Shown here one piece after another: positions 2,504 to 62,564 of a stretch of 64,000 bases of DNA. A model generated the notes under the pieces. The model was not told the origin of the DNA, ran no database searches, and was given only the letters and a program-made list of their open reading frames with translations. Made by a program: the position numbers and the translations under genes. Where the stretch lies: the NCBI GenBank assembly GCA_038731975.1, contig JAVYQJ010000001.1, forward strand, positions 1 through 64,000, given 5' to 3'. How positions within the stretch are numbered: the stretch's first letter is position 1; each line of letters starts with the position of its first letter. The stretch comes from Thermofilaceae archaeon (GTDB lineage Archaea > Thermoproteota > Thermoprotei > Thermofilales > Thermofilaceae).

Positions 2504-2613
2504 TGGTGCCGGGGCCGGGATTTGAACCCGGGACCTTCCGGTTTCTTCCGGTTTCCCGTCTTCAGCCGGACGCTCTATAGCGCGGGGGTACCGACCCGCT
2601 GAGCTACCCCGGC
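2504..2613 (-). tRNA. tRNA-Phe (GAA) with two introns, CCA encoded
   Basis: The acceptor stem GCCGGGG/CCCCGGC, discriminator A at 2507 and encoded CCA (2504-2506) are clear. The anticodon arm TCCGG-CTGAAGA-CCGGA carries anticodon GAA and is interrupted by about 17 nt (2542-2558) at the canonical 37/38 position. The gene is still too long: the D arm holds about 15 extra nt (roughly 2580-2594). Removing both gives a 75-nt tRNA with a normal D-loop. So there is one canonical intron and one probable D-loop intron. The exact D-loop splice points are not fixed by inspection. Confidence 0.9.
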
Positions 2614-14049: not shown

Positions 14050-16180
14050 AGAAGAGTCCTTCCTCTTCCTCCTCCTCTTCTACGCGCTCTGCTTCAAACA
14101 CGCCTTTCAACCTGCTAAACACACCTCTTCCCCTTTCTTCCTCTTCCTCGAGCTCTCCCCCGTACGTTATGAAAACCTGTTTAACTGCACGCCGGGTGGA
14201 GATGTATCTGTAGGCAAAGAGTGTAGCTGCCAATGAGATGGCTAGCGCAGTGCCTAGCACAATAAGCTCTCCGGTTCTAAGCTGTATCCAGCCGTAATCC
14301 ACCAGTAGGTCTAGTTTCACTTTCACTGGGTCTCCGCTGGTCAGATCTCTAAGCGATAGAAGCCTCTGAGAGGTGATCCTACCTTTCGTGACGGTGAGAG
14401 TAGAGTTGGAGCCCGGGAGGAAGGGTACTTTCACTTCAACCCTACCGTCGTAACCGGTGATCGCGCTCGTGTTGAAACTATAGTCGAAGCCCTTGACTAA
14501 GACTGTCACTTGCGCGCTCGCTACCGGTCCGAGAACCCCTTCGACTTCCACCAACATGGGGTACACGTACGTGTTTAACGTAATCTGCCCCGACGCGGCA
14601 TCGGCAAGGTGCTTACCAACGGTGATGTTGCCCCATAACACTTCAATCAGCGCAGCATCCCCGTAAAGGTACCTAGCTTCAACCAAGCCTTGCACGTCGC
14701 TGGTGAATCGCCTCTTCCCCAGCGAGTCTGTGACTACAACCAGCGCTCTTGGGAGAGGGTTGCCCCTTGCATCGGTGATTTTGATTGAGAGCTCGAAGAA
14801 GCGCAGTTCAAAGACCATCACCCTCTCGAACGGGGTGAAGCTGTGGACCATCAGCAGCGTACCGTTCCAGCTAACCTCCAGCTTGAGGAGCTCGTCAGTT
14901 AAAACGTAGTTTGGCAACGCGAATTCCGCGGTACTCGTTGGGTGATCCGTAACATCCTCCACAAGCACCGCGTTTCTGTAGAGCACCCTCACGGTTAAGC
15001 CTGGAGGGAGTGTGCACCGATCACCGCACCTTTCGTTCGGAGTAAGTTTGAGGGTGAGACGGCGGAGCGGTAGGTCGACGAATACGTCGCCAGGTCTCAC
15101 GTAAACCTGCCTGGTGATGGTTCGGTTCATCCAAGTGAAACTGAGGGTGTAGAGGCCCTCAACTACGTCCTGGATGAGTATGCGTCCCGAAGCGTCAGTG
15201 GAAGCTAGAGTATCGCGTGCCGGGCCAACGATTCTTAGAGTCAAACCTGTGATCGGTTGACGGTCGGCATCGAGCACGGTCAGTGCAACGGTTGGTATGA
15301 CCCTTGTGGTCAGAGTGACGTTGCGAACCGTTCGGTCGACTTGAACTAGCGTTTGCAGCAGCCGTTCGCCTTTCCACGTCACCGTCACAAGATAGCGTCC
15401 GTAAGGTATGTTGCGAAGTCGAATCGGTACACCCTGTGTTACACCCCTGAAGACTGTGACGTTCTCCACGCCTACGTACACAAGCTCAACCCCTGCACCG
15501 CTTAGCGGTGACCCGTCAGCTCGCAGCACATGGATAGAGAAGCTGCCAGCTACTCCGATCATAACTTGAGCGGTTGAAGTAGTGTTACTGACATACAGGG
15601 TATTGGTAAGCACGGGCGCCTCGACCCACTTGTTAGGGACTATTTCGTAAGAGGCATTAGTGAAGCTGTAGGCACCAAAGGGTAGGGTTACAGTTTGGCC
15701 GCACCTTAGTTGGGCTTTGAGCTCCCTCACCTCGATTAGGCATCCGCTCAACCTTTCATTCTCATCGTTGACGCCGTAAACATCCAGGTTTATAGCATTG
15801 ATTTTAATGATTCCATTAAGAATCTTTACCAAGGTATTGTTCATGGACGAATCGATAGGAAGAGCTTCAGAATGGTAGAAGACTTGCTTCCCTAACCACG
15901 ATACAGTTAAGTTGAACCTGAAATTAGCTGTACCATTAATTAACTCTATGTTTTTGATATCAAATAAACATGATAAACATCTCTTCTGTAAAGTTGTATT
16001 CCCAAATAATATTGTTACTATCGGTTGTTGATCGTCAAACCCGGCTATGGGGCGTCCTCTCGCATCAGTTATGTTGAATCCTAGCGTGAAGCTCACGGAT
16101 TCTGGGCGCGCTAGGGTAATGCAGGCTAGGGCCAGTGTAGCAACTGTTATTACTAAGCCTGTACCCCTTTTACTCACCAC
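14036..16180 (-). CDS. Large secreted, membrane-anchored protein with Ig-like repeats
   Basis: The 714-residue protein has a signal peptide (hydrophobic residues about 9-24), a long extracellular part, one transmembrane helix near residues 640-660 and an acidic cytosolic tail ending in glutamate runs. The extracellular part repeats a beta-sandwich unit with the recurring pattern DARGxPIxG or DADRQPITGLTL and ASGRILIQDVVEGLYTL, as in CnaB/carboxypeptidase-regulatory-like domains. Function is structural or adhesive by inference. Its paralogue is at 28052-29983. It overlaps trpS (7 bp) and the radical SAM gene (14 bp), so translation may be coupled. Confidence 0.8.
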   Translation of the reverse strand: MVSKRGTGLVITVATLALACITLARPESVSFTLGFNITDARGRPIAGFDDQQPIVTILFGNTTLQKRCLSCLFDIKNIELINGTANFRFNLTVSWLGKQVFYHSEALPIDSSMNNTLVKILNGIIKINAINLDVYGVNDENERLSGCLIEVRELKAQLRCGQTVTLPFGAYSFTNASYEIVPNKWVEAPVLTNTLYVSNTTSTAQVMIGVAGSFSIHVLRADGSPLSGAGVELVYVGVENVTVFRGVTQGVPIRLRNIPYGRYLVTVTWKGERLLQTLVQVDRTVRNVTLTTRVIPTVALTVLDADRQPITGLTLRIVGPARDTLASTDASGRILIQDVVEGLYTLSFTWMNRTITRQVYVRPGDVFVDLPLRRLTLKLTPNERCGDRCTLPPGLTVRVLYRNAVLVEDVTDHPTSTAEFALPNYVLTDELLKLEVSWNGTLLMVHSFTPFERVMVFELRFFELSIKITDARGNPLPRALVVVTDSLGKRRFTSDVQGLVEARYLYGDAALIEVLWGNITVGKHLADAASGQITLNTYVYPMLVEVEGVLGPVASAQVTVLVKGFDYSFNTSAITGYDGRVEVKVPFLPGSNSTLTVTKGRITSQRLLSLRDLTSGDPVKVKLDLLVDYGWIQLRTGELIVLGTALAISLAATLFAYRYISTRRAVKQVFITYGGELEEEEERGRGVFSRLKGVFEAERVEEEEEEEGLFYEEF

Positions 16181-17310
16181 TGCTGGCTCAACGTTTTCTC
16201 CTCTAGCAGTCTTTCTGCCAAATCTCGCATTTTATTTCTTTTCTCCTGGTGGTTTCGCAACCATTGTTCGATGATCGTCCAGGCTCTGGACTTACACTCC
16301 CCGCAGAGTATCTGACCAGTTCTGCACTCCCAGTACCATTCCTCAAGCCGTTTATCGTCTTCGAGGAAGTGAGCGAGGAGGAGCTCCACAAAAACGACGC
16401 ACTTTTCAGGCTCACCGCCCAACCTTCTCTGTTCTTCGGCGGTGGCTCGTCCGCCCGTAAAAGCCTGCATGACCTTCACTTTAGCTGAGCTGAGCTGCTC
16501 GTTTAGGTAGAGGATGCCCATGGGGTTCCTCTTAGACATCTTCTCTTGGCCCGTCAAGTCCCTGAGCAAACGATGGTACGTCGCTGAGGGTAGAATGAAC
16601 CCGAATTCCTCCCTGAACTTGCTGGCTAGGTCTCGCGTTAACCTGATGTGAGGATCCTGGTCGGCACCAACGGGGACTATCGTTGGTTTCGGCCCACCGT
16701 GCTGGGGCAGCTGAGGATTGAGTATATCGCCCGCCTGCACCAATGCTGAAAAGTACAAACCGAAGGGCTTAGGGCCGTAAATGGCTTCCATCATGTTGTA
16801 CGTGACAGCGCGCGAAAAGATGAACGCCAAGCGCAGAACGGGCATTTCGGCTGATTGTTTGTAAACGTACACCCTCCTGGGGTCGAGACCCAAGGCTAGC
16901 AGATCCATTAAGTTGCTTAACGCGATTCGGTGGCTCTCCTCCAGCGGGATTCTGTTGTCAGCGTACGCTTCTAGATCCGCGATCGCAAAGAAGCCGAATG
17001 CTTTCGGCGATAGCGACTGGAAGTAAATGAACTCCTCGGATGTCAGCTTAGCCCCCAAATGGTAGTCACCGCTAGGTTTAATCCCCGTCATTACCGCGTA
17101 GCTTTCCCCCTCCTCGATCGCCTTCAGTATCAAGCCAAGATCTCTGTGTCCGAAGATCACGCGCCTCCTGATCAACCTGTGCTGGAAAGGCAACCGCTTT
17201 ACAAGCTCGTCTGTAAGCGGCTCTATACCGAATTCTTGCATTAGCCTATCGTAATCCTTTACGTGCGATGTACCCCAGGGGTCGAGGACTATCCTCTCCT
17301 CTTCAGACAT
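16174..17310 (-). CDS. trpS: Tryptophanyl-tRNA synthetase
   Basis: Class I synthetase for tRNA-Trp, 378 residues from ATG 17310. The HIGH-type motif is PSGDYHLGAKL and the KMSKS-type motif is EKMSKRNP; the DPWGTSHVKDYD N-terminal segment is the archaeal/eukaryotic TrpRS signature. The open frame continues 60 codons upstream to 17490, but ATG 17310 has a TATA-like ACCTTATTTC about 26 bp upstream and begins at the conserved N-terminus, so the extension is probably not translated. The C-terminus contains CRTGQILCGECK, cysteines of a small added zinc-like knuckle. Confidence 0.94.
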   Translation of the reverse strand: MSEEERIVLDPWGTSHVKDYDRLMQEFGIEPLTDELVKRLPFQHRLIRRRVIFGHRDLGLILKAIEEGESYAVMTGIKPSGDYHLGAKLTSEEFIYFQSLSPKAFGFFAIADLEAYADNRIPLEESHRIALSNLMDLLALGLDPRRVYVYKQSAEMPVLRLAFIFSRAVTYNMMEAIYGPKPFGLYFSALVQAGDILNPQLPQHGGPKPTIVPVGADQDPHIRLTRDLASKFREEFGFILPSATYHRLLRDLTGQEKMSKRNPMGILYLNEQLSSAKVKVMQAFTGGRATAEEQRRLGGEPEKCVVFVELLLAHFLEDDKRLEEWYWECRTGQILCGECKSRAWTIIEQWLRNHQEKRNKMRDLAERLLEEKTLSQQW

Positions 17311-17479
17311 ATGGGCGACTCGTTGAGAAACGAAATAAGGTTTTTGCCCACGTATTTTCGCCTCTACCTTCACCAGCTTTTGACCCCAAGGCCCATCCCC
17401 CGGTCTCCAGGTCTCCACCAAGTGGCTCAACCTTAAGCTCACCCTGAATTCCCTCCGCAGTCTGGCAGCGTGAGGAACA

Positions 17480-17800
17480 AGCGGCCGCACATGATGAGGG
17501 TGTGAACCCCCAACTGGCGCACCGGCGACGGTGCGCTGGGAGGCGGGCGAGTAAGCCGCCCTTAGCGGCCGACATCATAACGCCCCGCACTGGACGTCCA
17601 CGGTCGAAAGGCTGGGGAGGCCGGGGGGCGGGCCCCTCGAGGAAAACCAGTGAAGGGTGAGATGCGCACCAGGCGCGGACCGAAAACCCCGTAGGTTCCG
17701 CGCTTGTCCTCTGGCTCACCGACCAAAGAATCTTTGCTCTTGCGGTGAGTACGGGAGAGCGAGGGGCTGATTGTGGGACAAATCGATGAGGTGGGGGTCC
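17480..17800 (+). ncRNA. Unassigned GC-rich structured RNA candidate
   Basis: About 320 bp between trpS and the AbrB-like gene carry no credible protein but are much richer in G+C than the genes around. Perfect hairpins are visible: GGCGCACCG-GCGA-CGGTGCGC (17516-17537, GNRA loop), GGCGG/CCGCC just after, CTCACCG/CGGTGAG around 17714-17749, and GGCGCGGACC/GGTTCCGCGC around 17672-17703. AACCCCCA (17505-17512) can pair with TGGGGGTC (17792-17799), closing the whole element. GNRA-type loops (GCGA, GAAA) occur only when read on the plus strand, hence my strand choice. I could not find the conserved motifs of RNase P RNA or SRP RNA. Confidence 0.45.
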
Positions 17801-17811
17801 GCGGCGGAAAG

Positions 17812-17844: not shown

Positions 17845-18138
17845 ATGGGGTACGAGGTTGAAACGGGAAGATCCCCCCTTCCCTATGAGTCAAAAGTCTA
17901 CATAAACAATCAGGTTTTAATACCGGCATCGATCGTGAAGGCCCTCAACCTACGTGACGTAAAGAGGGCGCGCATAACCCTGGAACACATGGGGTCAGAG
18001 GTTATCGTTGAAGTGAAGCTGTTGAGGACTCGTCACACCGACTCGCGCCAGTTCACTATACCTAAGAGCGCTAGAGACAGGTACGGAATATCACCTGGCT
18101 CAATGGTAAAGATAAAAAGCATCGAACCCTTAGATTGA
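17845..18138 (+). CDS. AbrB/SpoVT-like swapped-hairpin protein, two tandem half-domains
   Basis: The 97-residue protein has two copies of the AbrB beta-hairpin pattern: KVYINNQVLIPASIVKALNL near residues 17-36 and RQFTIPKSARDRYGISPGSMVKI near residues 68-90. Such proteins are DNA-binding regulators, often of adjacent genes or as antitoxins; there is no toxin gene next to it here. ATG 17845 is leaderless with a strong TATA box. A C/D sRNA candidate starts 4 bp after its stop codon. Confidence 0.75.
   Translation: MGYEVETGRSPLPYESKVYINNQVLIPASIVKALNLRDVKRARITLEHMGSEVIVEVKLLRTRHTDSRQFTIPKSARDRYGISPGSMVKIKSIEPLD
18111..18119 (+). promoter_or_regulatory. TATA-like element of the 18142 sRNA
   Basis: AGATAAAAA inside the 3' end of the AbrB-like gene is centred about 27 bp before the expected 5' end of the C/D RNA that follows. 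Confidence 0.4.
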
Positions 18139-58929: not shown

Positions 58930-59044
58930 TGGTGGGCCCGCCGGGATTCGAACCCGGGACCTCCCGCGCTCCTAGTCCGATTGACCCGCTCAGCTGCAAC
59001 CCGAAGCTTGTAAGGCGGGCGCCCCACCGCTGGGCCACGGGCCC
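58930..59044 (-). tRNA. tRNA-Val (UAC) with 40-nt intron, CCA encoded
   Basis: Acceptor stem GGGCCCG/CGGGCCC with discriminator A (58933) and encoded CCA (58930-58932). Anticodon arm CCCGC-CTTACAA-GCGGG reads anticodon UAC after removal of a 40-nt intron (58968-59007) at the canonical 37/38 position. Spliced length is 72 nt plus CCA. Confidence 0.92.
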
Positions 59045-62189: not shown

Positions 62190-62286
62190 TGGTGCGGCCG
62201 CCGGGATTCGAACCCGGGTCCTCCGTGCGGTGTCCCCGCTCTCCGGCGTGGCAGGCCGGCGTCCTACCAGACTAGACTACGGCCGC
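62190..62286 (-). tRNA. tRNA-Gly (GCC) with variable-region intron, CCA encoded
   Basis: Acceptor GCGGCCG/CGGCCGC, discriminator A (62193), CCA (62190-62192). Anticodon arm CCGGC-CTGCCAC-GCCGG is uninterrupted and reads GCC. About 20 extra nt (62223-62242) lie between the anticodon stem and the T stem; removing them gives the normal AGGAC variable loop and a 74-nt tRNA. So the intron is at a non-canonical position. Confidence 0.88.
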
Positions 62287-62445: not shown

Positions 62446-62564
62446 GCCGGGGTCGCCTAGCCTGGTCGAGGGCGCCGGACTCATAATCCGGGCCCGGGAT
62501 AGGATATCCGGTTAGCGGAAGTCCCGCCCGGAGAACCCGGGTTCAAATCCCGGCCCCGGCACCA
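62446..62564 (+). tRNA. tRNA with CAU anticodon (elongator Met or Ile2), 40-nt intron
   Basis: Acceptor GCCGGGG/CCCCGGC, A73 (62561) and CCA (62562-62564). Anticodon arm CCGGA-CTCATAA-TCCGG reads CAU. A 40-nt insert (62492-62531) follows the 3' anticodon stem; its ends can slide by four bases because of CCGG repeats, so the splice position lies between about 40 and 44, not the canonical 37/38. GTTTAAG lies about 29 bp upstream. Elongator Met is more likely than Ile2. Confidence 0.85.

What the first reader, a model, noticed from the sequence alone, without database searches (positions are those of the whole stretch)
17480..17800. GC-rich RNA island with no known family
A 320-bp gene-free island with several perfect hairpins, GNRA loops on one strand and long-range closing helix AACCCCCA/TGGGGGTC. 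In genomes of heat-loving archaea such GC-rich islands usually are stable RNAs. I found no RNase P CR-I/CR-V or SRP helix 8 motif. A direct echo GCGGCCG-ACAT occurs at 17481 and 17564.
Basis: partly seen in the sequence, partly recalled or inferred. Interest (0 to 1): 0.72.

Follow-up and report, generated by a model that had tools for sequence, protein, structure and literature searches.

The report
Orphan TnpB guide RNA in archaeon
The GC-rich island is a stray copy of the guide RNA that a mobile-element nuclease (TnpB, a relative of CRISPR Cas12) uses to find its DNA target, left in a Thermofilum-like archaeon without the nuclease gene beside it, so it is an unlisted member of a known kind of RNA and not a new class.

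Summary
The island is real: GC-rich, gene-free, with stable plus-strand hairpins, no Rfam match, and neither RNase P nor SRP RNA (both lie elsewhere in this genome). It is not a new RNA class. A blastn search with it found paralogues; in a genome of the same family (G014) 6 of 21 copies lie directly behind a full-length tnpB gene, overlapping its 3' end in 5 of the 6. Across 29 copies from two genomes the RNA ends in GGCGCGGAAC-like sequence, after which conservation falls from up to 2 bits to about 0 per position: the scaffold/guide boundary of a TnpB omegaRNA (reRNA). In the window the scaffold is 17515-17681 (+) and the guide would start at 17682. The copy lies in 430-445 bp that four measured relatives lack between trpS and an AbrB-type gene, so it came with an insertion. 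No tnpB is adjacent; the genome's only TnpB of this family has lost the RuvC-I aspartate and has no omegaRNA beside it. Best reading: an orphan omegaRNA of a deleted TnpB element without TnpA, probably a relic. A trans-acting role is possible but untested. Covariation is inconclusive: seen only on a structure-fitted alignment.

The parts
17515..17681 (+). omegaRNA (reRNA) scaffold core of a TnpB element
   Evidence: R1 covariance model 135.2 bits, E 7e-28 (this sequence is one of the 10 used to build R1); blastn homology to copies behind tnpB in G014
17517..17536 (+). stem I, 8 bp with GCGA tetraloop
   Evidence: (repeat I6)
17555..17569 (+). stem II, GCCGC-CCTTA-GCGGC
   Evidence: sequence; model alignment
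17581..17633 (+). stem III with inner stem IV (TCC/GGA and GAAA-capped extension)
   Evidence: model alignment
17670..17681 (+). conserved 3' end of the scaffold, CAGGCGCGGACC (family GGCGCGGAAC)
   Evidence: information profile over 29 copies
17682..17701 (+). predicted guide (flanking DNA just past the element end)
   Evidence: boundary; guide length taken from ISDra2 (PMC8612924)
17402..17490 (-). remnant of the antisense ORF that the paralogous element L042 carries between its left end and its RNA
   Evidence: 71% identity over 94 columns, E 2.6e-8; local score 82 against a shuffle maximum of 55 in 300
17350..17810 (.). approximate extent of the DNA that relatives lack between trpS and the AbrB-type gene; exact ends not resolved
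   Evidence: anchor distance 597 bp against 152-168 bp in four relatives; sequences
17702..17808 (.). GC-rich rest of the extra DNA, origin unexplained
   Evidence: no significant match in any locus held
16174..17310 (-). trpS (tryptophanyl-tRNA synthetase; name from recall of the family), left neighbour
17845..18138 (+). AbrB-type small protein gene (name recalled, not from a call), right neighbour
   Evidence: found in 19 of 21 genomes

Best explanation
17515-17681 (+) is the scaffold of a TnpB omegaRNA (reRNA), the right end of an IS200/IS605-type element of the kind without TnpA. In intact copies tnpB ends in this structured RNA; TnpB binds it, and about 16-20 nt of host DNA past the element's end serve as guide; the complex then cuts the same site where the element is missing, so that repair can copy the element back (mechanism established for ISDra2, inferred here). 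The window copy is a deletion derivative: tnpB is gone, part of an antisense ORF remains, and the RNA end is intact. Shown here: homology, position behind tnpB in a relative, the scaffold/guide boundary, the insertion at this locus. Inferred: transcription, TnpB binding, cutting. Since the genome's only TnpB of this family looks nuclease-inactive, the copy is most likely a relic or a non-autonomous passenger.
For: Paralogues in own genome and G014. 6 of 21 G014 copies directly behind a full-length TnpB on the same strand, 5 of 21 behind a C-terminal TnpB remnant; ORF overlaps the RNA core by 25-143 nt in 5 of 6. The protein matches Pfam Cas12f1-like_TNB and solved ISDra2 TnpB. Sharp scaffold/guide boundary over 29 copies. 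Insertion of 430-445 bp against four measured relatives, and the model finds no copy in eight relative loci. RNase P and SRP RNA are elsewhere.
Against: No RNA data. Covariation is at chance on the unfitted alignment. None of the 8 own-genome copies has a TnpB within 1.5 kb. Left end and TAM of the window copy are not resolved, and 17702-17808 is unexplained. The Pfam matches of two of three TnpBs are under the curated cut-off, and NCBIfam matches are far under theirs.
Confidence: 0.9

Rival explanations
1. The orphan omegaRNAs of this genome work in trans with its one remaining, nuclease-inactivated TnpB (C4:124025-125293) as an RNA-guided DNA-binding or repressor system that works like TldR.
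For: One intact 459-aa TnpB ORF with the RuvC-I motif SVNN in place of DVNS, no omegaRNA beside it, and 8 omegaRNA copies without tnpB, the window copy scoring highest. TldR guides as short as 6 nt act, and a broken tldR locus has been proposed to give guide RNAs in trans (PMC13418256, passages).
Against: The window guide has no other convincing target in the genome: one place with 3 mismatches, and the reversed control pattern also gives one. Five of the 8 own copies score 30-64 bits and look decayed. No association with a host gene was seen.
Confidence: 0.06
2. The island acts at the DNA level only: a short ends-only element (PATE- or MITE-like) whose hairpins are transposon-end signals, and the RNA is not made.
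For: Insertion at this locus, no tnpB, many short copies; PATE-like ends-only IS605 elements are described (PMC7290912, passages).
Against: The conserved part is the whole RNA scaffold and not only end palindromes. No Y1 transposase was found in either genome to move such ends. Not exclusive with the best explanation.
Confidence: 0.2
3. An unrelated host noncoding RNA (housekeeping or riboswitch-like), not connected with TnpB.
For: No Rfam family matches; the TnpB matches are remote.
Against: Position behind tnpB in G014, variable 3' flanks in 29 copies, presence in only 2 of 398 genomes of the phylum sample (stricter filters), insertion at this locus.
Confidence: 0.02

Closest known systems
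reRNA/omegaRNA of ISDra2 TnpB (Karvelis et al. 2021, PMC8612924; passages read)
   Same: structured RNA of about 150 nt covering the 3' end of tnpB and the right end of the element, ending in about 16 nt of flanking DNA
   Different: different sequence; no TnpA in the genome; the window copy has no tnpB beside it
Archaeal sotRNAs/omegaRNAs of IS200/IS605 elements in Halobacterium and Sulfolobales (PMC12558985; abstract, outline and section 3.3.3 read)
   Same: archaeal omegaRNAs that overlap tnpB 3' ends, several per genome
   Different: those discussed in the section read sit on tnpB genes; here 8 of 8 own-genome copies are without tnpB; no Rfam model covers this family
TldR, nuclease-dead TnpB-like repressors (PMC13418256; passages read)
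   Same: a TnpB homologue with a RuvC active-site loss in the same genome
   Different: TldR loci carry their guide RNA next to the gene; here none is next to it, and no target is known
PATE/MITE-like ends-only IS605 derivatives (PMC7290912; passages read)
   Same: short derivatives of IS605-type elements without genes
   Different: the window copy keeps a complete omegaRNA scaffold; its left end is not resolved

Membership tests
TnpB omegaRNA (reRNA) | encoded directly behind or overlapping the 3' end of tnpB (family level) | tested here: met
   6 of 21 G014 copies; ORF overlaps core in 5 of 6. For the window copy itself no tnpB is present
TnpB omegaRNA (reRNA) | constant scaffold followed by copy-specific 3' guide with a sharp boundary | tested here: met
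   information profile over 29 copies
TnpB omegaRNA (reRNA) | conserved RNA secondary structure | tested here: inconclusive
   plus-strand folding better than shuffles; covariation on the fitted alignment but not on the unfitted one
TnpB omegaRNA (reRNA) | transcribed, bound by TnpB, guides cleavage | not testable with these tools
   needs RNA-seq, RIP-seq and a cleavage assay
TnpB (partner protein, G014) | TnpB/Cas12f-type domain with RuvC acidic residues and zinc finger | tested here: met
   Pfam PF07282 E 1e-4 to 1e-9, ISDra2 TnpB profile match E 9e-5, motifs; the RuvC-I assignment is by motif order
IS200/IS605 element with TnpA | Y1 transposase gene in the genome | tested here: not met
   0 of 2 genomes
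TldR | RuvC-inactivated TnpB homologue | tested here: met
   RuvC-I Asp replaced by Ser in the C4 protein
TldR | guide RNA encoded next to the gene | tested here: not met
   best model score 6.4 bits in L084
TldR | guide matches a host or viral target | tested here: inconclusive
   one place with 3 mismatches in 18, control equal; only the window guide was tested (1 of 8 own copies), and short guides would be missed
RNase P RNA or SRP RNA | match to the archaeal Rfam models | tested here: not met
   the genuine genes are on C23

The most novel reading that the evidence does not exclude
An archaeon in which a nuclease-inactivated TnpB, having lost its own omegaRNA, is served in trans by several dispersed orphan omegaRNAs with different guides: a natural multi-guide CRISPRi-like network made from mobile-element debris, with the window RNA as its best-preserved guide.
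Probability: 0.06. Interest if true: 0.85.

Novelty: new member of a known kind. Interest (0 to 1): 0.4.

Why it matters
It turns an unnamed RNA island into a member of the OMEGA guide RNAs and gives a covariance model for a family that Rfam lacks. It shows omegaRNAs that outnumber their nuclease genes (8 copies with one damaged TnpB in one genome, 21 copies with six full tnpB units in another) in genomes where no Y1 transposase was found. That makes two questions testable: how such elements spread without TnpA, and whether orphan guides are used in trans.

Tried and rejected
RNase P and SRP RNA: rejected, both genes are found elsewhere. Rfam at a permissive threshold: only chance hits.

A left-end palindrome on the minus strand at about 17690-17757 resembles G014 left ends, but shuffles reach the score in 6 to 33 of 300 for the four G014 sequences and 134 to 193 of 300 for the two own-genome ones, so it is not claimed. 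An inverted partial copy of the RNA at 17362-17408 (-): inverted repeats, a model hit of 24.4 bits at 17378-17538 (-) (E 6e-4), local score 41 against a shuffle maximum of 37 in 500; the antisense-ORF homology explains 17402-17490 better, so this is left open.

A second genomic target of the window guide: none convincing. TnpB relatives in genome contigs and viral contigs: none (own and very near genomes may be left out there). The antisense-ORF protein: no Pfam match. Sigma-70 promoter and terminator scan: nothing, and not suited to archaea. A PCNA-like look of the antisense protein was an idea from memory only and was not tested further.

Rows: the fitted alignment A6 has 32 rows (30 distinct) and includes one antisense row of the window and duplicate rows of L054/L068; none was dropped before the count. 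The unfitted alignment A9 used 19 of the 29 copies; the shorter or more decayed ones were left out. Structure prediction and fold search were not used.

Full report
Observation. Folding of 17480-17810 is better than all 100 shuffles on the plus strand (z -3.4) and less so on the minus strand (z -2.0); for 17496-17701 alone z is -2.4 and -0.3. Rfam has no family for it. RNase P RNA and SRP RNA are on contig C23 of the same genome, so the island is neither.

Host. The protein of the gene left of the island (trpS) is 84% identical to that of a MAG named Thermofilum sp. KUA_Bin21. The window is from a Thermofilum-like archaeon; the genome itself is unnamed.

Paralogues. A blastn search of 101 genomes with the island found strong matches in two: four places in the own genome and seven in G014, a genome of the same family. 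The hits in six other genomes are 18-38 bases long and were not pursued. A covariance model from 10 copies (R1) then gave 8 copies at E<1e-3 in the own genome (7 of them under 1e-6) and 21 at E<1e-6 in G014. In a sample of 398 genomes of the phylum only these two had matches at E<=0.01 (stricter filters, which lose weak matches).

What the family is. In G014, 6 of 21 copies (L053, L054, L055, L057, L061, L062) follow a full-length protein of about 470-540 aa on the same strand, and 5 of 21 (L056, L060, L063, L064, L069) follow only a C-terminal remnant of it; the other 10 have none of their own. None of the 8 own-genome copies has it within 1.5 kb at E 1e-4. The ORF runs 25-143 nt into the RNA core in 5 of the 6 units and stops 98 nt before it in the sixth. 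Three of these proteins match Pfam Cas12f1-like_TNB (E 1.3e-4, 1.9e-5 and 1.2e-9, the first two under the curated cut-off) and have weak NCBIfam matches far under cut-off, mostly to TnpB models. As a profile they match the solved ISDra2 TnpB chains (E 9e-5). They keep a DVNS or DLNS motif, an aspartate at the RuvC-II position, two CxxC pairs and an RDY motif. They are TnpB.

Scaffold and guide. In the 29 copies the last ten positions read GGCGCGGAAC with small changes; information per position is 1.5-2.0 bits at -10 to -4 and at most 0.11 bits at +1 to +9 (0.41 at +10). One pair of copies (L053, L066) shares its flank, through an inverted duplication. A constant scaffold with a copy-specific 3' sequence is the signature of reRNA/omegaRNA, in which about 16 nt of flanking DNA serve as guide (PMC8612924, passages). 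The window scaffold is 17515-17681 (135.2 bits); the guide would start at 17682.

Structure. The model has six helices. On the model-fitted alignment 86.3% of cells pair and 19 of 30 pairs show changes on both sides (0 of 500 shuffles as high), but that alignment leans towards the structure. On an unfitted alignment of 19 of the 29 copies 81.9% of cells pair, against 43-54% when slid, yet double changes are at chance (4 pairs; 350 of 500 shuffles as high). I therefore call covariation inconclusive and rest the case on homology, position and the boundary.

Insertion. In five relatives (L086-L090) trpS and the AbrB-type gene are divergent neighbours. Between fixed anchors the distance is 152-168 bp in the four of five that could be measured and 597 bp in the window, so 430-445 bp were added here. 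L104 and L105 give 168 and 155 bp, but may be two of the same genomes. R1 finds nothing in eight relative loci. Inside the extra DNA, 17402-17490 (-) matches an antisense ORF that the paralogous element L042 carries between its left end and its RNA (71%, E 2.6e-8). The window copy is thus a deletion derivative without tnpB. The stretch 17702-17808 remains unexplained.

Nuclease supply. The own genome has one TnpB of this family, C4:124025-125293 (E 7.8e-90; the next three hits have E 0.04-0.1), an intact ORF of 459 aa. Its RuvC-I motif reads SVNN in place of DVNS, and no omegaRNA lies beside it (best 6.4 bits). In ISDra2 the mutation D191A of the RuvC site blocks cleavage (PMC8612924, passages); that the changed position corresponds to D191 rests on motif order and not on a call. 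No Y1 transposase was found in either genome. The window guide has no convincing second target: one place with 3 mismatches, and the reversed control pattern gives one as well. The copy is therefore most likely a relic or a passenger; a trans-acting role with the inactive TnpB is possible and untested.

Literature. Archaeal omegaRNAs (sotRNAs) are described on tnpB loci of haloarchaea, with circular forms also in Sulfolobales (PMC12558985: abstract, outline and section 3.3.3). PATE-like ends-only IS605 elements are described (PMC7290912, passages), and so are TldR repressors (PMC13418256, passages). A search for Thermofilum with TnpB gave no paper; a search with solo, standalone and orphan terms listed nothing relevant in the 20 shown of 11,729. 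Most subscription papers are not held, so this does not show that nothing is in print.

Verdict. An ordinary kind of RNA in an unusual state: an omegaRNA without its nuclease gene, in a genome that keeps several of them and one damaged TnpB. New member of a known kind, interest 0.4.

Noticed in passing
L042 1762-2115 (+) and L063 1856-2470 (+): An antisense ORF (117 and 205 aa, about 34% identical; no Pfam match) lies between the left end and the omegaRNA in elements of both genomes; in L063 a second ORF appears to overlap its stop codon.
   Followed up: partly
L026 1387-2766 (+), own genome C4: The only TnpB of this family in the own genome: intact ORF, RuvC-I Asp replaced by Ser, no omegaRNA beside it.
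   Followed up: partly
G014 C3:1896-3768 (L066, L053, L078): A tnpB-omegaRNA unit has an inverted partial omegaRNA on its other side, and both are followed by the same 65 bases; an inverted duplication of end plus guide region, perhaps a repair product.
   Followed up: partly
window 17702-17808: About 100 bp of GC-rich extra DNA right of the guide, absent from relatives and without a match in held loci.
   Followed up: partly
window 17378-17538 (-): A weak antisense match to the omegaRNA model (24.4 bits) with inverted repeats to 17616-17661.
   Followed up: partly
window 2507-2613, 58933-59044, 62193-62286, 62446-62561: Four tRNA genes of 94-116 bases by Rfam, so probably with introns; ARAGORN in its bacterial setting reports only one.
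   Followed up: no
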